Notes under the pieces: model-generated
Seen by the model: the letters and a program-made list of their open reading frames with translations, nothing else
Told to the model about the DNA's origin: nothing
The model's database searches: none
In this document: in pieces, positions 13,314 to 36,324 of the stretch
How positions within the stretch are numbered: the stretch's first letter is position 1
Layout: every line of letters starts with the position of its first letter
IMG/VR virus record: IMGVR_UViG_3300040801_003693
Location: 62,001-126,000 of that record
DNA length: 64,000 nt
Strand: one strand, 5' to 3'
DNA from: a virus
Position numbers and translations under genes: made by a program

Positions 13314-14315
13314 TTAAGAAATTAAATGACTGAACTTAGGCAATATTTGATTTTCGTAAAACCATAACCCCTGCGAAGCATTCACATTATAATCCAGTTT
13401 GATAAAATTTAATACACTCTCTACAAATTCTGATAGTTTAATAAAACTTATATCTTCCATACAACTGATAAGTCTACTAGCATCTTCTGTAATACCTTTA
13501 GGAGAAAGGAAGATTAATTTTACACTTTTATTCTTATATTTATTTTTAGCTAAATTTAAATAACCTTTCTCTCCCAGGGTGGAAGAGACATGATTGATAT
13601 TAATTTGATCCTTTTTAATTTCGTATATTTCAACCCGTGGTTGTTCTAAAGCGGGTTTGAATAAAGTTAAATCAAATCTGCGGCTTTTACAGTTATCTTT
13701 ACAAACAAGAAGATTGTTAACTGCATCTTCTTGTTTGAAATGATAATTAGAATAAGAGAGAAGTTCAACTAAACAAGAATGAATGTCTGCTTCGCTAAAG
13801 CAATTATTAGTTTTTATAGGTGGGATAACTATTTTAGATTGAAGTTTTTGAGCAGAAGGGGATACGAATTGTTTTAAGATTAACGAATCTTTTTTGTTAC
13901 AGCTATACTTATTTAGATTTCTGTCAATATAATCAAGACAAGTTTTCCAATCTCCTATCCATAAGACCTTTTTATTACCTAAATAAATATTGTATTTTAA
14001 ATAATAGTTTTTAACAAAATTATCTAAACTCTCTGAGTGCAGTCTAAAATGTCTTCCATACAAAGGAGACATATTTTCTTTGCGTTTATTATTCCTTTTT
14101 AGAATAGCGGCATTTGTCCAATGTTTTCTAAAGTTGCAGGCGTTATATCCTATCGAGGAAGAAACCTCTGACATTACAAAATAAGCACCGCTTTTAGTTT
14201 TAGGACTAGATATCCATTTTAAATCATACTGGACACAATACTCTTTTAACTTTTCTATACTTCTTAAATTTGAAGAGCTATCTTCTTTTAGTATTGCGTT
14301 ATTCAAATTAATCAT
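13314..14315 (-). CDS. Putative PD-(D/E)XK nuclease-like protein
   Basis: 333 residues from ATG 14315 (MINLNNAILKEDSSSNLRSI); a longer start at 14429 would translate the A+T repeat leader. The C-terminal half has SEADIHSCLVELLSYSNYHF, then RRFDLTLFKP followed by VEIYEIKKDQ: D...E-x-K spacing typical of the PD-(D/E)XK fold, where the Asp and the E-I-K bind metal. The N-terminal half has many Lys/Arg/Asn and could recognise DNA. It lies upstream of the DHH gene on the same strand, with a 16-base gap. Homing, restriction-like or recombination roles are all possible. Confidence 0.55.
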   Translation of the reverse strand: MINLNNAILKEDSSSNLRSIEKLKEYCVQYDLKWISSPKTKSGAYFVMSEVSSSIGYNACNFRKHWTNAAILKRNNKRKENMSPLYGRHFRLHSESLDNFVKNYYLKYNIYLGNKKVLWIGDWKTCLDYIDRNLNKYSCNKKDSLILKQFVSPSAQKLQSKIVIPPIKTNNCFSEADIHSCLVELLSYSNYHFKQEDAVNNLLVCKDNCKSRRFDLTLFKPALEQPRVEIYEIKKDQININHVSSTLGEKGYLNLAKNKYKNKSVKLIFLSPKGITEDASRLISCMEDISFIKLSEFVESVLNFIKLDYNVNASQGLWFYENQILPKFSHLIS

Positions 14316-27594: not shown

Positions 27595-29832
27595 ATGTTA
27601 ATTCCATCCGTTAACTTTGTTGAAAACAATATAGGAATAACTCCGATTACGCCGGGGGTAAGAAATAGAATAGGAATAGTAGGTGAGTTTAGTAGGGGAC
27701 CGGCTAATGTCGCTACTTATATTACTGGCTATACTGACTTTTCTACTCGTTATGGTTCTGATACTAATAAAGGTTCATTAGCCTATCAAGCTGCATTCGA
27801 CCAGGGTGCGGAAGAGTTTATGGCTGTTCGGGTATTAGGAAGAGGAAAGGTTAGTAAAGGTGCAGTAGTATTTGGTGGGGAAGTAGCTAAGCCAAATAGA
27901 TTATTAATGAATCTTAAGTTTATTGGTAATGTTGTTGACAAAGGCACTATTCCAATGGTGAGTAGTGCTTTTACTACCGGGATGTATACAGGTTCGGTAA
28001 GCGGAAGATATTATTTTTATGTTAGTACCGCAGACAGTACCAATGCCACTATCAAATGGAAATTCTATAGATTAGGTGCAGAGCCTACAGTTATTGATTG
28101 GAGTGAGATAACAGATACTTTAACTATTAATTTAACAACTGATAAAGGTTTAGAGAAAGAAGTTGAGAATGGATTAAAAGTAATTTTTGGTACTGCATCT
28201 CAAACAGATCCTTTGTATTTAAGTGTAGGAAATAGTTTCTCTGTAAGGTGTAATTCTTATTTATTAGAAACTGAAATTAATACTGGGGAGTTACCTCCTC
28301 AAATGATTACTCAGTTTATTGATAGTGTTGTAGGATTATACCCACTAGGAAATATAGTTAGAGACGAATTCCAAACTGGAGCTATTTTTGAATTAGAAGA
28401 AGATTTAATTGGTTCTATCGGGAATAAATTTTATTACTGGTTTGAATTACAAGATGAAGTTGATTCTGGTGTTACAGTTTATCCCCACGGAATAGAAGAA
28501 GCATTGACTTTCCAGGGTGGAGAAGACCAGCCAAGAAATGCTTTTAGAGACTTTTATACTTTATCTGGAATTCCTTTAATTAGAATAATAGCTTTATCAG
28601 AAGGAAGTTGGGGTAATCAACTTAATGTTTCAATCTTCCCTTTAAATAATAAAAAGTTTAGATTAAGTATTGAAGATTTAAATGCAGAGAATTTTAATCC
28701 TCGTTTTGAAGCTGAATCTTATATTATTAATATTAATGAAGTTGACGCTGATGGTCAACTAAATCAATTATCAAATAGCTCTTTAGTAAGAGGATTCTTT
28801 ATTCCAAAATTAAATAATCCTGCTGGATTTGATAGCTCTTTGCTTTTGCAATCTCCTCAAAGAATTGCTCCTATTAATGAATTAATTGTAGACCTTGAAG
28901 ACCCTACTCATAAAGATCATTTTGGCATTAATTTCTTACAGAATATTTCTTTACAAAATGGTTATGATGGACCGGGTATTACTGATGAAGATTATATAAA
29001 CGGTTTAGAAGTTATTAAAGAGCAACCTGCACATATTATTATTTGTCCTGGACAGTATCAATCTACAAATATTAGACAAGCGATGATCTCTCATGCTGAG
29101 AATGCTTCTGAACTTGAAGGATTAAGAATCGCAGTACTAAATGCTCGACCAAGATTAGTCCCTGGTGCTGCCAATCAAGAGACTGTAGGATTAGAATCTA
29201 CTAGAGCAGTTATGGTTTCTGGTTGGTGTTCCTATAGCGGACAACCTAATGCCCCTCGGTTCGGAACTTCTCCTGATGCTTTCTATGCAGGTAAGCTAGC
29301 TAATACCCCTTTCTTTGCAGGACCTAACAGTAGAAGAACTGCTGGCTCTGTTCAAGCTGTTTCTGAATGCGATGCTTCTAAATTCTCTTCTAAAAATTCT
29401 TTACAAATTTTTACTGATGCTAAACTAGAGATTTTAACTTTAGATCCTTCTACTCAATCTTATGTTTTCACTAACGGCAGAACCTTAAGCGCTAACATTG
29501 ATTGGGAAAAGGTTTCCTTCCGACGGACTTACGATTATATTAGACAAGACTTATTTGACCTGCTTCAACAGTACAAATCTGAACCTCATACTAATTTGTT
29601 ACGTACACAAATTGTTACTGCTATTAATGGCTATATGAATGAACGTGCTAGAAACAGCGAGATTGCTTCCTACGGCGGAACTATAGCTGACTCTAGTAAT
29701 AACACTGTTGAAAGTTATATCCGTGGTGAGCTTAATATTAGTGTAAGATTTCTTCCAGTTTATGCCCTAGACTACATAAACGTAATCTTAATACGTGATA
29801 GCCAAACTGGTTTGGTTAGCTTTGGTAGTTAA
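27595..29832 (+). CDS. Contractile tail sheath protein
   Basis: 745 residues. N-terminal GVRNRIGIVGEFSRGPANVA with TRYGSD and the C-terminal block (DWEKVSFRRTYDYIRQDLFD, NGYMNERARNSEIASYGGTI, LNISVRFLPVYALDYINVIL) are typical of phage tail sheath proteins; the middle also has EDYINGLEVIKEQPAHIIIC and VSGWCSYSG. Sheath subunits surround the tube and contract to drive it into the host. At 745 residues it is longer than the roughly 400-500 of P2/Mu-type sheaths, so it probably has inserted outer domains as in T4-like phages. The tube gene is separated from it by the accessory island, an unusual arrangement. Confidence 0.9.
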   Translation: MLIPSVNFVENNIGITPITPGVRNRIGIVGEFSRGPANVATYITGYTDFSTRYGSDTNKGSLAYQAAFDQGAEEFMAVRVLGRGKVSKGAVVFGGEVAKPNRLLMNLKFIGNVVDKGTIPMVSSAFTTGMYTGSVSGRYYFYVSTADSTNATIKWKFYRLGAEPTVIDWSEITDTLTINLTTDKGLEKEVENGLKVIFGTASQTDPLYLSVGNSFSVRCNSYLLETEINTGELPPQMITQFIDSVVGLYPLGNIVRDEFQTGAIFELEEDLIGSIGNKFYYWFELQDEVDSGVTVYPHGIEEALTFQGGEDQPRNAFRDFYTLSGIPLIRIIALSEGSWGNQLNVSIFPLNNKKFRLSIEDLNAENFNPRFEAESYIININEVDADGQLNQLSNSSLVRGFFIPKLNNPAGFDSSLLLQSPQRIAPINELIVDLEDPTHKDHFGINFLQNISLQNGYDGPGITDEDYINGLEVIKEQPAHIIICPGQYQSTNIRQAMISHAENASELEGLRIAVLNARPRLVPGAANQETVGLESTRAVMVSGWCSYSGQPNAPRFGTSPDAFYAGKLANTPFFAGPNSRRTAGSVQAVSECDASKFSSKNSLQIFTDAKLEILTLDPSTQSYVFTNGRTLSANIDWEKVSFRRTYDYIRQDLFDLLQQYKSEPHTNLLRTQIVTAINGYMNERARNSEIASYGGTIADSSNNTVESYIRGELNISVRFLPVYALDYINVILIRDSQTGLVSFGS

Positions 29833-29992
29833 TCAAAAAACGATTTAAAGCGGGGGTTAAAACAGATACTACTTCTGGATTGTTTTTAATAATCTCAGCA
29901 TCTCTTGCACAATTACTACAACCACAATCGCAGCCATGCTCTTTTAAATTTATAGCTGCTTCTATTACAAGTTGCGTTATTTTTTTATTCAT
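29816..29992 (-). CDS. Small cysteine-rich protein
   Basis: 58 residues from ATG 29992 (MNKKITQLVIEAAINLKEHG); an ATG at 30031 would add 13. The cluster CDCGCSNCARD gives four cysteines in eight residues, a likely metal site. Convergent with the sheath gene and overlapping its end by 17 bases. Function unknown. Confidence 0.5.
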   Translation of the reverse strand: MNKKITQLVIEAAINLKEHGCDCGCSNCARDAEIIKNNPEVVSVLTPALNRFLINYQS

Positions 29993-30068
29993 AAGAAAAT
30001 TTCTGCTTACAAAACTATATAAGTTTGCCATATGATTATATAATCATATTCTAAACTTATACAAAAAT

Positions 30069-30212
30069 ATGCTTGATAAATTTTTAGGGAAGTTAGAACA
30101 AAACATAAAACTACCTACTATTGGAGCAGTTATTGGTTCCGCTTTTGGAATCCCAGGTTCTGTTCTAGGATTACTTATTGTAATTGGTTATTTCACTATT
30201 TCGGAAGAGTAA
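30069..30212 (+). CDS. 47-residue glycine-rich membrane peptide
   Basis: ATG 30069 to TAA 30212: MLDKFLGKLEQNIKLPTIGA, then VIGSAFGIPGSVLGLLIVIG, YFTISEE. An amphipathic N-terminus is followed by one membrane helix with Gly-x3-Gly-like spacing. A perfect terminator hairpin follows. Divergent from the 29816 gene. It could be a small holin-like, exclusion or bacteriocin-like peptide; no family is recognised. Confidence 0.45.
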   Translation: MLDKFLGKLEQNIKLPTIGAVIGSAFGIPGSVLGLLIVIGYFTISEE

Positions 30213-30228
30213 ATTAATTGTTAATTAT

Positions 30229-30257
30229 GAAGTCACGTTCTATAAAAACGTGACTTC
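30229..30257. terminator. Bidirectional terminator hairpin
   Basis: GAAGTCACGTT, loop CTATAAA, AACGTGACTTC: a perfect 11-bp stem between the forward 30069 gene and the reverse 30270 gene, with T-rich sequence after it on the forward strand. Confidence 0.75.
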
Positions 30258-30269
30258 TTCTAATTCTAT

Positions 30270-30749
30270 TTAAGTATTAATTAATTCTAAATTAAATATT
30301 TCAGCACAAATATTACCAAGATATACTGGAGCATTTGGAGCTAATTCATATCTAAAGTATTTAGGATTAGTCTCAATCTTTCCATTCTTATTAAAGATTA
30401 AAGGCTTCCATACCACTTGATTTAATTGTGGTTGTTTATTCTTGATTGTAATCTTGTCGTATTCAATAATATCAAATGAATGTGGATAGTCCCTTTCTCC
30501 TGGGAGATAAGGATAGTGATGAATCCATTTAGTATTAAGTGGATTTAGATTAAAATCATGAATAATTAAAGGTGTAATAAATTCTACTGAATTAGTAATG
30601 CTAGTTCCAGTATTTGAATCTGTCATAATAACAATTGTTTCAGATTCAAATTCTACTAGTTTTAATTGACAATAAGAATCCCAATTACCAAATCCATTTC
30701 CAAATCCTTTCCAATTATATTTTGTATTAACTAAAATGTTATATTCCAT
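30270..30749 (-). CDS. Hypothetical protein downstream of the solitary CRISPR repeat
   Basis: 159 residues from ATG 30749, with AGGA nine bases upstream. Sequence MEYNILVNTKYNWKGFGNGF, then LVEFESETIVIMTDSNTG, TKWIHHYPYLPGERDYPHSF and a Pro/Asn-rich end. Looks like a compact beta-rich soluble protein without signal peptide. Its start is 38 bases from the end of a CRISPR-repeat-like unit, so it could be an anti-CRISPR-type or effector-associated gene, but nothing in its sequence proves this. A CTCC-TG-GGAG palindrome lies in frame (30497-30506). Confidence 0.6.
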   Translation of the reverse strand: MEYNILVNTKYNWKGFGNGFGNWDSYCQLKLVEFESETIVIMTDSNTGTSITNSVEFITPLIIHDFNLNPLNTKWIHHYPYLPGERDYPHSFDIIEYDKITIKNKQPQLNQVVWKPLIFNKNGKIETNPKYFRYELAPNAPVYLGNICAEIFNLELINT

Positions 30750-30787
30750 TGCGGTTTTATCCTACTTGAAAATTTAATTAAATAGCA

Positions 30788-30824
30788 GTTTCAATCCCTG
30801 ATAGGGATTAGAATTAATTTCCAC
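30788..30824 (-). CRISPR. Solitary CRISPR-repeat-like unit (single copy, no array)
   Basis: On the reverse strand a 37-base unit starts GTGGAAATTAATTC, has the palindromic core AATCCCT-ATC-AGGGATT and ends ATTGAAAC. The hairpin core and the 8-base ATTGAAAC end are hallmarks of cyanobacterial type I/III CRISPR repeats (a very similar core occurs in Anabaena repeats, from memory). I found no second copy in the window. The 38 bases between its ATTGAAAC end and the ATG at 30749 equal a spacer in length. Solitary repeats in phages are known as mini-arrays or RNA-based anti-CRISPRs. Confidence 0.65.
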
Positions 30825-30864
30825 GGGTAGTACTCGATATGAGAACATTGACCGAGCTTTGAAG

Positions 30865-30892
30865 CCGTGCGCCCCACGGACTTTTTATCAAA
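30865..30892 (+). terminator. Terminator-like hairpin on the forward strand
   Basis: CCGTG, CGCCC loop, CACGG, then ACTTTTT. There is no coding gene directly upstream on this strand; the sequence before it is the complement of the CRISPR-like unit and about 40 bases of unassigned DNA, so it might end a small forward RNA. No convincing promoter was found. Confidence 0.45.
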
Positions 30893-30940
30893 TTGTTTTT
30901 TGAAGTTGCAGGCTGCATTTCTGCATTTAATTGGATTACA

Positions 30941-31008
30941 TTTCATCTCACACTTTTCATTTCGGGTAGGGTGTGAGACTTCCCGCCGAGAAAGTTAAAG
31001 TTTCATCA
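30941..31008 (-). repeat. Hairpin element A flanking effector pair 4 (IS200/IS605-end-like)
   Basis: On the reverse strand: AACTTTCTCGGCGGGAAGTC, then CACAC...GTGTG hairpin and GAGATGAAAT. It aligns over about 70 bases with element B (31834-31904). The form 'GAAGTCccaca...tgtggGATGAAT' resembles the hairpin end of cyanobacterial IS200/IS605 elements, where the TnpB guide RNA scaffold lies (from memory). No tnpA or tnpB is present. It overlaps the stop of the 30995 gene. Confidence 0.45.
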
Positions 31009-31321
31009 TTTTTTCAAAGTACCTCATCTTATAAATCAACATAACCAAAGATGGAAGTTCTGGATTTATTGGTTTATAAATCTCAAAGTCCTGGTAATCC
31101 CATATATGATTAGGATTACCTTGACAGCCTACAGTGTAAGCGTGCAAAAACTTATAGCCTTTAATTTTCTTTTGACTACTTAGGTATTTTTTGACTGCTT
31201 CTTCCGGACTTATTTCGCAGCACAAACGTGGTGTTGTAGGAAGACTAAAGTATGAATTAGTTTCAGGACAGGCGGTTAGCATAAAAATAGTTTTTACGCC
31301 TTCTAAAATTTCTGATTTCAT
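30995..31321 (-). CDS. Putative partner (immunity-like) protein of effector pair 4
   Basis: 108 residues from ATG 31321, overlapping the end of the effector gene at 31318 by four bases (ATGA). Contains TIFMLTACPETNSYF near the N-terminus, GNPNHIWDYQDFEIYKPINP near the C-terminus and several cysteines. EIYKPINPEL matches the YYKPLHPE tail of the partners at 9822 and 43123. Soluble, no signal peptide. Coupled translation and the shared tail support a role as cognate partner. Confidence 0.65.
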   Translation of the reverse strand: MKSEILEGVKTIFMLTACPETNSYFSLPTTPRLCCEISPEEAVKKYLSSQKKIKGYKFLHAYTVGCQGNPNHIWDYQDFEIYKPINPELPSLVMLIYKMRYFEKMMKL

Positions 31322-31710
31322 TTAGCAATACATCTCCAACTTCCATTTGATTTTTGTTCAACACGGACAAATTCTAATCCATGCATATCACTTTCTCTTT
31401 GACATCTTTCTTCTGCTTGTTCTTGGGTTAATTCTTTCCCATATATATTGATAACCTGCTCTTCCTCAAAAGCGTCTGGTTCATCAATCATCTTGCGTAC
31501 ATTACCTTTCTCGTCTGCAAAGTATTTCTTCTTTGCAGTGCGGTTATGCCAAACATAAGAAGTCACTCCACCAATAATAGTAGTGCCCAACAAAACACAA
31601 ACCTTCGCGCAAACCAAAGGCGCAATAACTATCGGCACTGCCTCAACTTTACGAGGCATATTTAAACTAACTGCTAATCCAACAGCCAGCATTTCTGATA
31701 AAATCTTCAT
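31318..31710 (-). CDS. Secreted/membrane effector-like protein, pair 4
   Basis: 130 residues from ATG 31710 (MKILSEMLAVGLAVSL...NMPRKVEA); the frame stays open to an ATG at 31839, but the paralogue at 6017 starts at the equivalent MKI and the extra part covers structured DNA. The segment VEAVPIVIAPLVCAKVCVLL is almost identical to the 6017 protein; after it KKKYFADEKGNVRK also matches. The C-terminal part then diverges (EQVINIYGKELTQEQAEERC) but keeps the two cysteines and ends GSWRCIAK. Strong N-terminal identity with a divergent C-terminal domain is what is seen in polymorphic effectors. Confidence 0.7.
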   Translation of the reverse strand: MKILSEMLAVGLAVSLNMPRKVEAVPIVIAPLVCAKVCVLLGTTIIGGVTSYVWHNRTAKKKYFADEKGNVRKMIDEPDAFEEEQVINIYGKELTQEQAEERCQRESDMHGLEFVRVEQKSNGSWRCIAK

Positions 31711-31742
31711 ATTGAGTAACCCGCCTCTAACGGGTGAAAGAT

Positions 31743-31794
31743 TGCCGCGATAATACCAACGTGTCCAGCGTTGGTTGCGGTATATTTTTTTACC
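31743..31794. repeat. 52-base repeat copy 1 (second copy 42699-42751)
   Basis: Begins TGCCGC, has AGCGTTGGTT in the middle and ends ATATTTTTTTACC, as does the copy in front of effector pair 5. This copy also folds: CCAACG pairs with CGTTGG around TGTCCAG. With the T-run on the forward strand it looks like a terminator. It lies inside the alternative 5' extension of the pair 4 effector gene. Confidence 0.5.
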
Positions 31795-31833
31795 ATTCAA
31801 AATACTTCCACGGCAATCAATATCCGGTTCGTA

Positions 31834-31904
31834 ATTCATCCCAACACTTCTCTTACGGGTAAGTGTGGGACTTCTTACGATTGAAAGTTAAATTTTCATG
31901 GTGC
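31834..31904 (-). repeat. Hairpin element B flanking effector pair 4 (IS200/IS605-end-like)
   Basis: On the reverse strand: CTTTCAATCGTAAGAAGTCC, then ACACTT...AAGTGT hairpin with CCCGT in the loop, then GGGATGAATTAC. Related to element A (30941-31008), same orientation, so the effector/partner pair sits between two imperfect direct repeats. Resembles IS200/IS605 hairpin ends; no transposase is nearby. Confidence 0.5.
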
Positions 31905-31964
31905 TTTTCAATATTATATAGGTATAAAAAATAATAATCAGAAAAAGATACAAAATGTAATATT

Positions 31965-32125
31965 TAATCAGCCCCTAAGTATTTTTATTCCACTATCAAG
32001 TATAAAAATTCAGCATAAAATTCGCGGAGGGTTTTTATTGCTTGATAGCTTAAATCCTTTCTCTATATACATTTGAGCCTCAACTCATAACAACTACGAC
32101 TTAATACTTGCTCTTCCGCGAATTT
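31965..32125 (-). promoter_or_regulatory. CRISPR-leader-like, highly structured sequence after the cas1-like gene
   Basis: Directly downstream of the Cas1-like stop. TCCGCGAATTT (32115-32125) and AAATTCGCGGA (32018-32028) are perfect 11-base inverted arms 86 bases apart; CTATCAAG (31993-32000) pairs with CTTGATAG (32041-32048). On the reverse strand the order 'TTCGCGGAag...CTCCGCGAATTTTATGCTGAA..ACTTGATAG...AGGGGCTG' resembles leaders in front of cyanobacterial arrays (from memory). No repeat follows directly. It could also be another structured RNA or the cas1 3' end. Confidence 0.45.
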
Positions 32126-32129
32126 GTTT

Positions 32130-33101
32130 TTATCTTAAATAAAAAGGATTGTACATTTGAGAGCCATCCTCACAAATATTTTTTATTTGCTGCACCCGGA
32201 TAGAAATTGCATCAGAATAATTTACTTCCATCTTTGTATTGGGATATTTAAATTTGTATTTTAATTTGTTGCTAAAAGATTGTGCTAATTTCTTTTGAAT
32301 AATTTCAGGAAGTACATCCTCAGTGTATTCATTAAAATCAGAAGCGCATATAGTTTTCAGATTGAATACTTTAATTAATATAGGATCGATTAGATAAGGC
32401 GACATTTCAAATTTAAGATCGGCAACTAATGCTCCACATTTGTGCTTCTCACTATGCCTAAATAAGGATATTTCTTCACTGACATTATTAGCAATCAAAG
32501 TAATTCTTATTTGCTTTTCTAATAAACTTTCTAGAAAGACAATACACATTTGTGCTATCGAATCTTTTCTCTTACCGTAATATTCGATATCATCTATAAA
32601 GAATTTTCCTAGTAAAGCATAATATTTTGCATGAATTAATCCTAAGTACCCGTTGATTGAATCTATCCCTTTGCTTAATTGAATTTGCTGTAAACTGTAA
32701 TTATAAAATATTTTAAATTGTTTTAATTCCTCTTCGCTAATAGAATTTCTATCACGATACTGTCTTCTTAAAAAGTTGTACCTTCTTTTCGTAACTAAAA
32801 TTGATTGTTGCTTCACAATGTCTAATCGTAAAGCATTATAGTTAATAGCATAACTATTAATTGCTTTTCCAAACTTATATATCCCCCCAGGAGAAGAGAT
32901 AATTACAGTAATGTTCTTATCAATTAAAAGCTGTAATACTCCAGAGCTAATACTTATATCTGAAGTATTTATACATAAGCAAACATTGTTTAAGTCTTCA
33001 ATTGTTTCTAATATATATTCAGGATTAACATAGCCTGTTTCTAGTTCTGTACTGTCAAGAGATATTATTTTAGAGAATGGATAATGATTACTGCTATTCA
33101 A
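32130..33101 (-). CDS. Cas1-like protein, apparently lacking the catalytic glutamate
   Basis: 323 residues from TTG 33101 (AGGA eight bases upstream). The N-terminal domain has strands ending ITVIISSPGGIYKFGK (residues 64-79). The C-terminal helical domain matches Cas1: GYLGLIHAKYYALLG (151-165, equal to G-x-E-G..A..YF), KDSIAQMCIVFLESLLE (179-195), FRHSEKHKCGALVADLKFEM (214-233) with His216 and Asp228, then SPYLIDPILIKVF, and NYSDAISIRVQQI (294-306). The usual catalytic Glu falls at Leu153, so integrase activity is doubtful. No cas2 or effector cas gene is nearby. Upstream gene ends 9 bases before. Possibly repurposed or a dominant-negative adaptation protein. Confidence 0.7.
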   Translation of the reverse strand: MNSSNHYPFSKIISLDSTELETGYVNPEYILETIEDLNNVCLCINTSDISISSGVLQLLIDKNITVIISSPGGIYKFGKAINSYAINYNALRLDIVKQQSILVTKRRYNFLRRQYRDRNSISEEELKQFKIFYNYSLQQIQLSKGIDSINGYLGLIHAKYYALLGKFFIDDIEYYGKRKDSIAQMCIVFLESLLEKQIRITLIANNVSEEISLFRHSEKHKCGALVADLKFEMSPYLIDPILIKVFNLKTICASDFNEYTEDVLPEIIQKKLAQSFSNKLKYKFKYPNTKMEVNYSDAISIRVQQIKNICEDGSQMYNPFYLR

Positions 33102-33110
33102 ATTAATTTC

Positions 33111-33410
33111 CTAATTAACTATTTGAAACACTGCTGAATAATTTAGAAGAAATTGCATTAAAGAATCTTGAGAACCAGCATAAAGATAGTTTCTATGTCC
33201 GGCTCTAGAAGGAACTTGTTTGGAAAAGATTATAAATTCATTAATTAAACCTAACTTTTGTTTATCTAATATATTTGAAATTAATACATGAGTAAAAGAA
33301 TCTTCTCTTGTTTGATGTTCTCTACCAATGGCTATACCTTTATTATTATTTAACCAAGGTTCTGCATCTGTATAGTTGATAAACTTATATACTTTAATTT
33401 TATTGTTCAT
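33111..33410 (-). CDS. Hypothetical protein upstream of the cas1-like gene
   Basis: 99 residues from ATG 33410 (MNNKIKVYKFINYTDAEPWL). Continues FTHVLISNILDKQKLGLINE and RAGHRNYLYAGSQDSLMQFL. Alpha/beta, soluble, about the size of Cas2, but it lacks the N-terminal Y-D-I/D strand of Cas2, so I do not call it that. In operon with the Cas1-like gene (9-base gap). Confidence 0.55.
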   Translation of the reverse strand: MNNKIKVYKFINYTDAEPWLNNNKGIAIGREHQTREDSFTHVLISNILDKQKLGLINEFIIFSKQVPSRAGHRNYLYAGSQDSLMQFLLNYSAVFQIVN

Positions 33411-33486
33411 TTTTATAAACTGCTTTTCCAAATTTATTATTGTTAGTAAACAAGCTGATTTTAAAATGAAACATATAATTAATTTC

Positions 33487-33933
33487 TTAACTCCACGGAT
33501 TGTTTTCTTCTAAATATCTTTCTATCTTAGTTTCTATTTCAGATTCCATTACATCCATGTGTCCATCAACATCTGCATACCATCCATGTTCGTTTAGTGT
33601 TTTTATTAATGCTTGAACTGCACGTGCCTTTGCTAATTTTACTCTTCCTTGAGGAGTTTTAAAATACTCCTCACGCTTCTTAGCTCTTTCTCTTTTTGCT
33701 CTCTCTGCTTCTTCTAATAATTGTTTAACCTTCTCTACATCACATAAGTAACCTGGGTCGTATCCCGCTCCTATTTCTTTTCCTTGTGCAGTATAACGTT
33801 TTCCGTTAGATAACTTCACCTGTCCTGACTTGGTTATATTACTCACTATTCCTATCTTTGCTTTTATTCCTCTTCTATCGTTGTAGTAATAAATCCCTAT
33901 CTCTTGTCCTAGTTTTAAGTTTGATGTGTTCAT
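33487..33933 (-). CDS. Hypothetical protein with N-terminal beta-barrel-like and charged helical parts
   Basis: 148 residues from ATG 33933. Residues 1-55 (LKLGQEIGIYYYNDRRGIKA, VSNITKSGQVKLSNGKRYTA) look like a small SH3/KOW-type barrel; residues 65-105 form a strongly basic-acidic helix (EEAERAKRERAKKREEYFKT), and the end is acidic. Proteins of this plan are common among small phage genes. Function unknown. Confidence 0.6.
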   Translation of the reverse strand: MNTSNLKLGQEIGIYYYNDRRGIKAKIGIVSNITKSGQVKLSNGKRYTAQGKEIGAGYDPGYLCDVEKVKQLLEEAERAKRERAKKREEYFKTPQGRVKLAKARAVQALIKTLNEHGWYADVDGHMDVMESEIETKIERYLEENNPWS

Positions 33934-34312
33934 AGTTTACTTTTAATTCTGTTGATTGAATATCAGTTTAGTACATTCTCTCTCCGGAGAGAAGAGTCGT
34001 ACATTAGCCTTATTGAAAGGTTTATTTTAGGTTGTACAAGGTTCTTGTACAAGGTTTTTAGCACCAGAAAAACTTTTGCAATGATTCTAAGAGATAAGTC
34101 TTATATTTCTTTAATTCATTTATATAAACTCTACAGATGATTATTTTAAGTATATAGTCTTTATTTATTAATATTTTATAACTCTGTATGCCTTATAGTA
34201 TAAGCTTTGCAGCTATTCTCAAGTGTAGTCTATTTCAAGAAGGTTGACTAGTTTATATGTAATAAAGATTGTTATATTGAGTTATAATAATATTAGGAGA
34301 AACTCACGTAGT
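33934..34312. other. 379-base intergenic region before the tube gene
   Basis: Holds a long palindrome, TTCTCTCTCCGGAGAGAAGAG (CTCCGGAG at 33982-33989), two CTTGTACAAG-type palindromes in tandem near 34035-34060, and A+T-rich DNA with TATAGTATAA and TTGACT/TATAAT-like promoter strings before an AGGAGA. A 62-codon forward frame exists here but lacks protein-like composition. Most likely promoter and leader of the tube gene. Confidence 0.5.
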
Positions 34313-34987
34313 ATGCAATTATACCAAGCCCCGGTAAACAATGTGGGACTCGACCCTTTGCAGGGTTTTGATTTCGAGTGTTGGTGTCAAGATGTAGCTT
34401 CTGGAAAAATTGCTTGGTTTGGAAAGTTTCAATCTTTGACGCTTTCTGTACGGGACGCAACGGAAACATATCTAGAATTAGGACAACGTATACCTATTTA
34501 CCTTAATGGTGAAATTCAAGTAGCGTGGGTTTTAGAACAAGGACTTGTTGATATGTCTTTTATTAAGAGAACCTTTGGTGCAGATGAATTATCACGTCAA
34601 CAGTTCATTACTAGAGGACCGCGTTTTCAAGTTACCTTTGATGCGAATGCAGCAGAACTCAATGGAGTTCCTGATAGACCAATAAATAGTACTAATGGTA
34701 ATGTACTCAGACAAGGAACTACAGAATACTCTGTGCTTAAGGATGATTTATTTATCGGGTCTTCAGCACAAAGAGCAAAAGGAAGATACGAATTGTTAAG
34801 ATGTAAAGTAGACTCAGTATCTTTAGGTATCATGCCAGGTCGTCGTGTCGCGGCGGTTCGTTGGGAAGGTGTAGCAGAAGGTTTGAGATTTAGAGAGAAT
34901 CAAACCGTTCAGGAATTTAAGACTACTAGAAATAATGTCGGTAGAAACTTTGGTGGTTTCGATCCCGGTTCTCAAGAAATTGCTTAA
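34313..34987 (+). CDS. Contractile tail tube protein
   Basis: 224 residues from ATG 34313 (MQLYQAPVNNVGLDPLQGFD), with GGAG 12-15 bases upstream. Features: SLTLSVRDATETYLELGQRI near the N-terminus, IQVAWVLEQGLVDMSFIKRT and the C-terminal RYELLRCKVDSVSLGIMPGR. Size and beta-rich composition fit the tube subunit that stacks inside the sheath. It is the first virion gene after the sheath on the forward strand, about 4.5 kb later because of the accessory island. Named by position and composition rather than a unique motif. Confidence 0.6.
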   Translation: MQLYQAPVNNVGLDPLQGFDFECWCQDVASGKIAWFGKFQSLTLSVRDATETYLELGQRIPIYLNGEIQVAWVLEQGLVDMSFIKRTFGADELSRQQFITRGPRFQVTFDANAAELNGVPDRPINSTNGNVLRQGTTEYSVLKDDLFIGSSAQRAKGRYELLRCKVDSVSLGIMPGRRVAAVRWEGVAEGLRFRENQTVQEFKTTRNNVGRNFGGFDPGSQEIA

Positions 34988-35376: not shown

Positions 35377-36324
35377 TTATTTATATAATCCTTCCCTTGG
35401 GAGAGGATTGTACTTTAGAAGAATCTTTGCCCACTCTTTATTCAATTTAGCTCTAAGATATCTTTGAGGTCTAAGCTGAATATGCTCTTCAGAAATATAG
35501 TAGATATTAGTATAAGGTTTGAATGCCAAATCTTTAAATTTATTATTAGTAAAGATTGGTTTACAATTTTCTCCTTCTGAATTTAGAAAACGAGTTTCAT
35601 GAAATTCATTACGAACATCTTCTTTGTCTAATCGTATACATTGCTGCTTTTTAATTACAGGTTTTAAGCCACGAGCTTTTCTGTAATTATTATCCAATCT
35701 TCTTTGAATGGTGGATGTGGAATATCCTGAATGCTTTGCAATATATTCTTGTGATGCTCCATATAGAAGGTTAGAAGAATTAACGTAAATAAATCTATCT
35801 GATAAAAAAAGTATCCGCTTGGATTTGCAGCAGAGTTTTTCAGCAGATAAAGTTTTTCGTATTAAATCTTTCTTCCCAACTGTCGCAGCATACAAACTTT
35901 TATCTTGCGCTCTAATAGCGTCAGCTTCAGTTGCTTTAAACTTTATATCTTTTAGTTCATCTACTCCTATTTCTGTTACTGCACCCAAGTTTTTAATTCC
36001 GTATCTAAGGCAGAGTTTGATTACGGAACAATAATAAAATCTGTAATAACCTTTTCTTAACTTTATTACATTTCTAAATAGACCTAACCTTTCTGCAAAT
36101 CTTATCCACCTACGAATTACCGAACACGATCTATCAAATATTCTAGCTGCTTCATTAATCTTAATATCCGCATATCCACTTCCTGCTTCATCTAAAGCTT
36201 TCGTTAAATAGAATAGTTTAATTGCACTATGCCCTTCTAATTGGCTGTTGTAGGTGTTACAGCCAGACCATAAAGCTTGATTAACGAGAGAACTGTGGAT
36301 ATGTATATAAAGCAAAGCAACCAA
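35377..36324 (-). CDS. Putative DNA-binding helix-turn-helix protein
   Basis: About 315 residues. The start is uncertain: no ATG near the 5' end, TTG at 36324 is the longest. Two helix-turn-helix-like stretches: EAARIFDRSCSVIRRWIRFA (N-terminal quarter) and SQEYIAKHSGYSTSTIQRRL (middle), each with basic residues after the turn. The remainder is Lys/Arg/Tyr-rich. This plan fits a replication initiator or regulator of phage-plasmid type. Upstream lies an inverted repeat with a central TATAAT and then the RHH gene on the same strand. Confidence 0.6.
   Translation of the reverse strand: MVALLYIHIHSSLVNQALWSGCNTYNSQLEGHSAIKLFYLTKALDEAGSGYADIKINEAARIFDRSCSVIRRWIRFAERLGLFRNVIKLRKGYYRFYYCSVIKLCLRYGIKNLGAVTEIGVDELKDIKFKATEADAIRAQDKSLYAATVGKKDLIRKTLSAEKLCCKSKRILFLSDRFIYVNSSNLLYGASQEYIAKHSGYSTSTIQRRLDNNYRKARGLKPVIKKQQCIRLDKEDVRNEFHETRFLNSEGENCKPIFTNNKFKDLAFKPYTNIYYISEEHIQLRPQRYLRAKLNKEWAKILLKYNPLPREGLYK

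What the first reader, a model, noticed from the sequence alone, without database searches (positions are those of the whole stretch)
30788..30824. A single CRISPR repeat, with ATTGAAAC handle, stranded in a phage genome
Reverse-strand 37-base unit with the palindromic core AATCCCT-ATC-AGGGATT and ATTGAAAC end, as in cyanobacterial type I/III repeats. No second copy was seen. Exactly 38 bases, a typical spacer length, separate it from the start codon of the 30270-30749 gene. Phage solitary repeats can act as RNA-based anti-CRISPRs or as mini-arrays against competitors. If transcribed it could occupy host Cas6 or Cas effector proteins.
Basis: partly seen in the sequence, partly recalled or inferred. 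Interest (0 to 1): 0.85.

Follow-up and report, generated by a model that had tools for sequence, protein, structure and literature searches.

The report
Lone CRISPR repeat beside dead Cas1
A virus of cyanobacteria carries one copy of its hosts' type I-D CRISPR repeat and, about 1.3 kb away on the same strand, a Cas1 gene that has lost two of its four catalytic residues; the pair looks like a small kit for jamming the host's CRISPR immunity, but this has not been tested.

Summary
Window 30788-30824 (minus strand) is one intact 37-nt CRISPR repeat: Rfam CRISPR-DR5 (45.3 bits, gathering score 40), 31/37 to the family consensus, next best place in the window 23/37, no second copy in the 136-kb record. 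The closest sampled host arrays are in Nostocales (4-6 mismatches); one follows a full type I-D cas operon. The phage is a Ma-LMM01/Fukuivirus relative. The repeat lies in a 4.4-kb insert between two structural genes that are neighbours in sister phages. That Cas1 lacks two metal-binding acids (Glu to Leu, Glu to Phe) kept in 50 of 50 other cyanobacterial Cas1 aligned here. No Cas2, Cas4 or Cas6 was found, and no host-type leader. The 38-nt gap is a 5' UTR with a Shine-Dalgarno site, not a bounded spacer. Best reading: a type I-D solitary repeat unit acting as an RNA anti-CRISPR, carried with a catalytically dead Cas1 decoy. Support by analogy: Ma-LMM01 and MaMV phages carry Microcystis I-D repeats behind a consensus promoter, with spacers matching each other's genomes. 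Transcription and function are untested. New variant of a known kind.

The parts
30788..30824 (-). Solitary 37-nt type I-D-like (DR5) CRISPR repeat
   Evidence: Rfam RF01318 45.3 bits over gathering 40, 37/37 positions; unique in the record
30788..30795 (-). ATTGAAAC, the 8-nt end that would become the crRNA 5' handle after Cas6 cleavage
   Evidence: sequence; identical in host arrays; cleavage itself not tested
30793..30809 (-). Palindromic core AATCCCT-ATC-AGGGATT, predicted Cas6 hairpin
   Evidence: fold -9.1 kcal/mol, z -1.93; Rfam structure line
30750..30787 (-). 38-nt 5' UTR of the downstream gene with AGGA at 30763-30760; not a bounded spacer
   Evidence: sequence; no credible protospacer in phage records
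30270..30749 (-). 159-aa protein P0001, probably translated from the repeat-bearing transcript; candidate accessory or anti-defence protein
   Evidence: no Pfam, PHROG or NCBIfam hit; weak PADLOC SduA N-terminal match 1.5e-6; distant cyanobacterial homologue, 29% over 103 aa
30825..30994 (-). 170-nt intergenic stretch upstream of the repeat; lacks the conserved host type I-D leader and any consensus sigma-70 promoter
32130..33101 (-). Cas1 homologue P0002 (323 aa) lacking two catalytic acids (Leu153, Phe231); His216 and Asp228 kept
   Evidence: Pfam PF01867 2e-11, PADLOC Cas1d 1.3e-15; alignments; the only Cas1 in the record
33111..33431 (-). 106-aa ORF P0003 directly upstream of cas1; not recognised as Cas2
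   Evidence: no hit in PADLOC, Pfam or NCBIfam; no Cas2 in the record
30995..31839 (-). Two small orphan ORFs (P0005 30995-31321, P0004 31318-31839) between cas1 and the repeat, same strand
33487..33933 (-). 148-aa ORF of the same insert (weak phrog_9662)
29833..34243 (.). 4.4-kb insert between the tail-sheath gene (27595-29832) and the LMM01 gp092 homologue (34244-34987), which are adjacent in Ma-LMM01 and Microcoleus phage My-WqHQDG

Best explanation
The unit is a type I-D solitary repeat unit that the phage uses as an RNA mimic of the host repeat (Racr-like). Read from the minus strand, alone or in the leader of the P0001 mRNA, it would be bound and cut by host Cas6d eight bases before its end. 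Cas6d and backbone subunits would then sit on a transcript that cannot become a complete crRNA. The cargo block that carries it also encodes a catalytically dead Cas1, which would most simply act as a dominant-negative decoy for host spacer acquisition. Shown: the identity, single-copy state and I-D-like sequence of the repeat; the cas1 homology and loss of two catalytic acids; the missing leader, Cas2, Cas4 and Cas6; the insertion as a cargo block. Inferred: transcription, Cas6d binding, inhibition, and the decoy role of Cas1.
For: Full-length DR5 match, unique in the record. DR5 repeats of Nostoc follow cas10d-csc2-csc1-cas6d-cas4-cas1-cas2. The 3' 23 nt with the Cas6 hairpin and handle is identical to host repeats while the 5' part drifts. 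No host-type leader, so it is unlikely to be a working array. Cas1 in the same insert has E-H-D-E changed to L-H-D-F, while 50 of 50 other cyanobacterial Cas1 sequences aligned, apart from the degenerate one of genome G384, keep E-H-D-E; it still has an intact 323-codon ORF, whereas the longest stop-free run in 302 shuffles of the insert is 187. The block is absent at this site in two relatives. Sister phages Ma-LMM01 and MaMV-CH01/CH02/DL01 carry host type I-D repeats shortly behind a 12/12 sigma-70 promoter, and MaMV-DL02 has the same repeats (repeat subtype from PMC4428289). Solitary repeats are proven RNA anti-CRISPRs for other subtypes, and one is bicistronic with an acr gene (PMC10651486). 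A phage Cas homologue that poisons the host complex has precedent in AcrIB3, a Cas5 mimic (PMC13131331).
Against: No expression data and no consensus promoter within 170 nt upstream, unlike Ma-LMM01. The host is unknown; the nearest sampled repeat differs at 4 positions, all in the 5' part. Of 420 host spacers extracted here, no convincing match to this phage was seen (the output was partly cut). No protein relative of this Cas1 was found in viral collections, so a conserved repeat plus dead-Cas1 pairing is not shown; they may be independent passengers of one cargo region.
Confidence: 0.5

Rival explanations
1. Single-repeat seed of a phage mini-array: the host's own Cas1-Cas2 can insert spacers at the lone repeat, producing crRNAs against competing phages.
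For: Sister phages carry I-D mini-arrays of 2-3 repeats; the MaMV-CH01/DL01 spacer matches Ma-LMM01 39/39 with a GTT flank, which fits the type I-D PAM GTH (PMC7648086), while the MaMV own copy has 4 mismatches at spacer positions 7-10; Ma-LMM01 spacer 1 matches MaMV-DC 35/36. The same arrangement is described for archaeal viruses SPV1/SPV2 (PMC6858448), and Nostoc phage N-1 has a DR5 array without cas genes (PMC4916379).
Against: This unit has no second repeat, no spacer with a target and none of the leader conserved in host arrays. The phage's own Cas1 lacks catalytic acids.
Confidence: 0.2
2. Relic: the phage once picked up a host CRISPR fragment (array end plus cas1) that is decaying; neither part has a function.
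For: Cas1 has lost active-site residues and sits on a very long branch; no other cas genes; in genome G384 a second catalytically degenerate Cas1 lies 40 bp after a DR5 array, so array-adjacent dead cas1 genes exist in hosts.
Against: The repeat's hairpin and handle are perfect, the cas1 ORF is intact over 323 codons although deeply diverged, and dispensable DNA is usually lost from lytic phage genomes (general knowledge). In the phage, cas1 precedes the repeat with two ORFs between, unlike G384.
Confidence: 0.18
3. Cis-regulatory element: the repeat in the 5' UTR lets host Cas6d cut the P0001 mRNA, so the gene senses an active type I-D system.
For: The repeat ends 38 nt before the ATG, just upstream of the Shine-Dalgarno site; the fold can pair the repeat's 5' GUGG with the CCGC just before the start codon.
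Against: No relative shows a conserved repeat-gene arrangement; P0001 has no known function.
Confidence: 0.08
4. Chance or a non-CRISPR palindrome that happens to look like a repeat.
For: Short palindromes are common; the T4-like coliphage hits to the unit (90% over 30 nt, E 0.1) show that partial matches occur by chance.
Against: Full-length covariance-model match above the curated cut-off and 31/37 to consensus with no near second-best.
Confidence: 0.02

Closest known systems
Solitary repeat units acting as RNA anti-CRISPRs (Racrs; Camara-Wilpert et al. 2023, PMC10651486)
   Same: One intergenic host-like repeat in a phage, no second repeat within 100 bp, beside small orphan genes; hairpin and handle intact
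   Different: Those units are described as not associated with cas genes and often immediately behind a promoter; here a degenerate cas1 lies in the same insert and no consensus promoter was found. Inhibition is not tested
Cyanophage N-1 DR5 array (Chenard et al. 2016, PMC4916379)
   Same: DR5 family (called type I-D there) repeats of cyanobacterial origin in a cyanophage
   Different: N-1 has five repeats, four spacers and an AT-rich leader, and no cas genes; here one repeat, no spacer, no leader, plus cas1
Virus-borne mini-CRISPR arrays and stand-alone repeats of Sulfolobales viruses (PMC6858448)
   Same: Phage or virus use of host repeats; stand-alone repeats also occur
   Different: Archaeal, with host-like leaders; this unit has no leader or spacer. 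The Ma-LMM01/MaMV arrays seen in passing are the closer match
Cas-homologue anti-CRISPRs such as AcrIB3, a Cas5 mimic (review PMC13131331)
   Same: A phage-borne, altered Cas protein that could poison the host's version
   Different: AcrIB3 is 38% identical to Cas5 and blocks interference; here the homologue is Cas1 at 18-24% identity and the expected target is adaptation
Type I-D Cas1 (e.g. Cas1 of PDB 7cr6)
   Same: Sequence homology over most of the protein; active-site His and one Asp kept
   Different: Two of the four metal ligands and the RRPPTDP loop are lost; no Cas2 partner in the record

Membership tests
CRISPR-DR5 / type I-D repeat | Sequence and hairpin match to the curated repeat family | tested here: met
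   RF01318 45.3 bits over gathering 40, full length
CRISPR-DR5 / type I-D repeat | Same repeat class used by a type I-D cas operon | tested here: met
   Nostoc T09 array (6 mismatches) directly follows cas10d-csc2-csc1-cas6d-cas4-cas1-cas2
Solitary repeat unit (SRU) | Single full match, intergenic, no second repeat or partial repeat nearby | tested here: met
   lies between ORFs 30270-30749 and 30995-31321
RNA anti-CRISPR (Racr) | Expressed as a small RNA during infection | not testable with these tools
   no transcript data; no consensus promoter upstream
RNA anti-CRISPR (Racr) | Binds or is cut by host Cas proteins and lowers interference | not testable with these tools
   needs experiment
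RNA anti-CRISPR (Racr) | Repeat subtype matches the host's CRISPR type | tested here: inconclusive
   host unknown; closest repeats in Nostocales
CRISPR array / mini-array | At least two repeats separated by a spacer | tested here: not met
   one repeat only
CRISPR array / mini-array | Leader upstream of the first repeat | tested here: not met
   conserved host leader motif (ccttgaaaacc..) absent upstream of the unit
Active Cas1 integrase | Cas1 sequence homology | tested here: met
   PF01867 2e-11, PADLOC Cas1d 1.3e-15, PDB 7cr6 E 0.0015
Active Cas1 integrase | Catalytic Glu-His-Asp-Asp/Glu set | tested here: not met
   L153-H216-D228-F231 in place of E-H-D-E; 50 of 53 aligned rows keep it, the others being this protein and the G384 protein twice
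Active Cas1 integrase | Cas2 partner encoded | tested here: not met
   no PF09827 match in the record at E 10; the record may be incomplete
Fukuivirus-like (Ma-LMM01) myophage | Homologous, collinear structural genes | tested here: met
   sheath 40%, major head 49%, gp092 homologue 55% and further genes in the same order

The most novel reading that the evidence does not exclude
A phage counter-CRISPR cassette that attacks both arms of one type I-D system: a repeat-mimicking RNA that ties up Cas6d/Cascade and a catalytically dead Cas1 that poisons spacer acquisition, the two being functionally linked, for example through Cas1 recognition of the repeat. Inhibition of adaptation by a Cas1 mimic was not found in the literature searched here.
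Probability: 0.2. Interest if true: 0.85.

Novelty: new variant of a known kind. Interest (0 to 1): 0.62.

Why it matters
If right, this would be an RNA anti-CRISPR candidate for type I-D in a cyanophage lineage, paired with a Cas1-derived inhibitor candidate. It also makes an open question testable: M. [quoted passage not shown] Ma-LMM01 carries four near-exact I-D repeat copies, three of them behind a consensus promoter, which could explain that.

Tried and rejected
P0003 as Cas2: rejected, no match in three libraries and no Cas2 in the record. Naive array awaiting spacers with its own adaptation module: rejected as the main reading because Cas1 is degenerate, Cas2 is absent and the leader is missing. 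Protospacer for the 38 bases: best E 0.5, spurious AT-rich hits. Spacers of 43 host or phage loci against this phage: 420 spacers, no convincing match seen, best E about 0.003 in the part of the output that was printed. Viral relatives of Cas1, P0001 and the sheath by the search for related loci: none. Structure prediction without alignments gave useless models for Cas1 and P0001 (pLDDT 39 and 32), so no fold search was run. Tree placement of Cas1: branch length 7.9, position not trusted, so I do not claim that it shares an origin with the degenerate Cas1 of G384. Exact 37-mer in genome contigs with two to three free bases at the 5' end: none. T4-like coliphage BLAST hits to the unit judged chance.

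Full report
OBSERVATION. The minus strand of 30788-30824 reads GTGGAAATTAATTCTAATCCCTATCAGGGATTGAAAC. Rfam finds exactly one RNA family in the window, CRISPR-DR5 (RF01318), at this place, over its full length and above the curated cut-off. The unit agrees with the DR5 consensus at 31 of 37 positions; the next best place in 64 kb has 23. The record is a 135,938-bp IMG/VR virus contig. The rest of it holds no other copy and no other CRISPR family. The repeat is therefore real and solitary.

WHOSE REPEAT. The exact unit (first bases loosened) is not in the 84,980-species collection. A looser pattern finds 12 stretches, all in Nostocales. The nearest repeat is from Anabaena sp. 4-3 with 4 mismatches; others have 5-7. 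All differences from these arrays lie in the 5' part, and the last 23 bases, with hairpin and handle, are identical. In Nostoc sp. T09 the array stands directly behind cas10d, csc2, csc1, cas6d, cas4, cas1 and cas2, so this repeat class works with type I-D. Host leaders before the first repeat are strongly alike between genera; the 170 nt before the phage unit show none of that leader. No consensus promoter lies there either.

THE 38 BASES. They are not a spacer: no second repeat closes them, they contain AGGA ten bases before the ATG of the 30270-30749 gene, and they have no credible match in phage records. They are better read as the end of the 5' UTR of P0001, which puts the repeat in that gene's leader. 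P0001 is an orphan with a distant cyanobacterial homologue and a weak match to the N-terminal part of Shedu SduA.

About 1.3 kb upstream on the same strand, 32130-33101 encodes a Cas1 homologue (Pfam 2e-11; PADLOC best Cas1d 1.3e-15; NCBIfam type I-D Cas1 2.5e-13, below its curated cut-off; PDB 7cr6). It is 18-24% identical to host Cas1 sequences over most of its best matches. Alignments put Leu153 at the catalytic Glu and Phe231 at the second acidic position, with His216 and Asp228 kept, and the conserved RRPPTDP loop is lost. Of 53 aligned rows, 50 keep E-H-D-E; the exceptions are this phage protein and P0006 from genome G384, which appears twice because two loci hold it. That an inactive active site follows is inferred from established Cas1 biochemistry, not shown. 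The ORF is intact over 323 codons in 31% GC DNA. The record has no other Cas1, and no Cas2, Cas6 or Cas4 by Pfam profile; it may be incomplete.

THE SETTING. The phage is a relative of Ma-LMM01 (Fukuivirus): sheath 40%, major head 49%, gp092 homologue 55% identical, genes collinear. In Ma-LMM01 and in Microcoleus phage My-WqHQDG the sheath gene is directly followed by the gp092 homologue. Here 4.4 kb of mostly minus-strand genes with the repeat and cas1 stand between them. This is a cargo insertion, absent at this site in both relatives.

SISTER PHAGES. Searching the unit brought up Ma-LMM01 and the MaMV phages. Ma-LMM01 has three units spaced 73 and 70 nt at 35763-35942 and one more at 13614. 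MaMV-CH01, CH02 and DL01 have two units each, and DL02 also has two places. The sequence is GTTCCAATTAATCTTAAACCCTATTAGGGATTGAAAC, the type I-D repeat DR1 of M. aeruginosa (PMC4428289), except that the last base is A in the Ma-LMM01 array and two bases differ in its fourth unit. FACHB-524, the host of the MaMV phages, has the same repeat with one change (PMC11855584). TTGACA-N17-TATAAT stands upstream of the first unit in the four loci read. The MaMV spacer is 39/39 identical to the Ma-LMM01 promoter region with GTT at the PAM side; the MaMV genomes' own copy differs at spacer positions 7-10. The I-D PAM is GTH (PMC7648086). Ma-LMM01 spacer 1 matches MaMV-DC 35/36 and others 34/36, but next to GCC, not a GTH PAM. 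This resembles the reciprocal targeting of SPV1 and SPV2, whose spacers also hit near the mini-arrays (PMC6858448). So this phage lineage repeatedly takes up host I-D repeats. My-WqHQDG has none.

MECHANISM. Solitary repeats in other phages are shown to be RNA anti-CRISPRs; the type I-F one occupies Cas6f and Cas7f, and a type I-C one is bicistronic with an acr gene (PMC10651486). The window unit has the parts needed for that: hairpin, handle, intergenic place, small orphan genes around it. It lacks a recognisable promoter, so I think it is read from an unrecognised phage promoter or as part of the minus-strand cargo transcript. Dead Cas1 most simply acts as a decoy subunit that blocks spacer acquisition. 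A phage Cas5 mimic that poisons Cascade is the nearest precedent (PMC13131331). Steps shown: sequence, subtype, solitude, setting, loss of catalytic residues. Steps inferred: transcription, Cas6d binding, inhibition, Cas1 decoy, and any link between repeat and Cas1.

LIMITS. Single metagenomic record, unknown host, no expression data, no relative of the cas1 in the viral collections searched, failed structure models. The literature library is open-access only, and I could not read the supplementary SRU lists, so I cannot say whether this record or Ma-LMM01 is already listed there.

Noticed in passing
L020 (NC_008562.1 35763-35942), L092/L107/L108 (PP681321/PP681323/PP681322): Ma-LMM01 and MaMV phages carry mini-arrays of Microcystis type I-D repeats behind a perfect sigma-70 promoter. 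The MaMV spacer matches Ma-LMM01 39/39 with a GTT PAM and its own genome only 35/39 (mismatches at positions 7-10); Ma-LMM01 spacer 1 matches MaMV phages 34-35/36 but without a GTH PAM. Looks like reciprocal phage-phage targeting.
   Followed up: partly
L091 (NC_008562.1 13614-13650): A separate solitary DR5-like unit in Ma-LMM01, overlapping the 3' end of gp016 on the other strand.
   Followed up: partly
L056:8954-10729 (G384:C4): A cyanobacterial Cas1 homologue (P0006) with the same two catalytic positions lost (Ile, Thr) starts about 40 bp after the last repeat of a 10-repeat DR5 array on the same strand; the genome has another Cas1 elsewhere.
   Followed up: partly
L002:5263-5299, L007:5515-5551: Another DR5 solitary repeat (43.8 bits) in an intergenic region of a different viral contig, no Cas1 in the contig.
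   Followed up: partly
L025:10344-10559 (record 134344-134559): HEARO RNA (HNH endonuclease-associated RNA, RF02033, 128.8 bits) near the end of the phage record.
   Followed up: no
30270-30749: P0001 matches the N-terminal part of the Shedu SduA profile (1.5e-6) and a small cyanobacterial protein that shares a WIHH/WIEH motif and is encoded next to a Uma2 nuclease gene.
   Followed up: partly
30229-30257: Strong 11-bp hairpin between P0001 and the sheath side, terminator-like on the plus strand.
   Followed up: no
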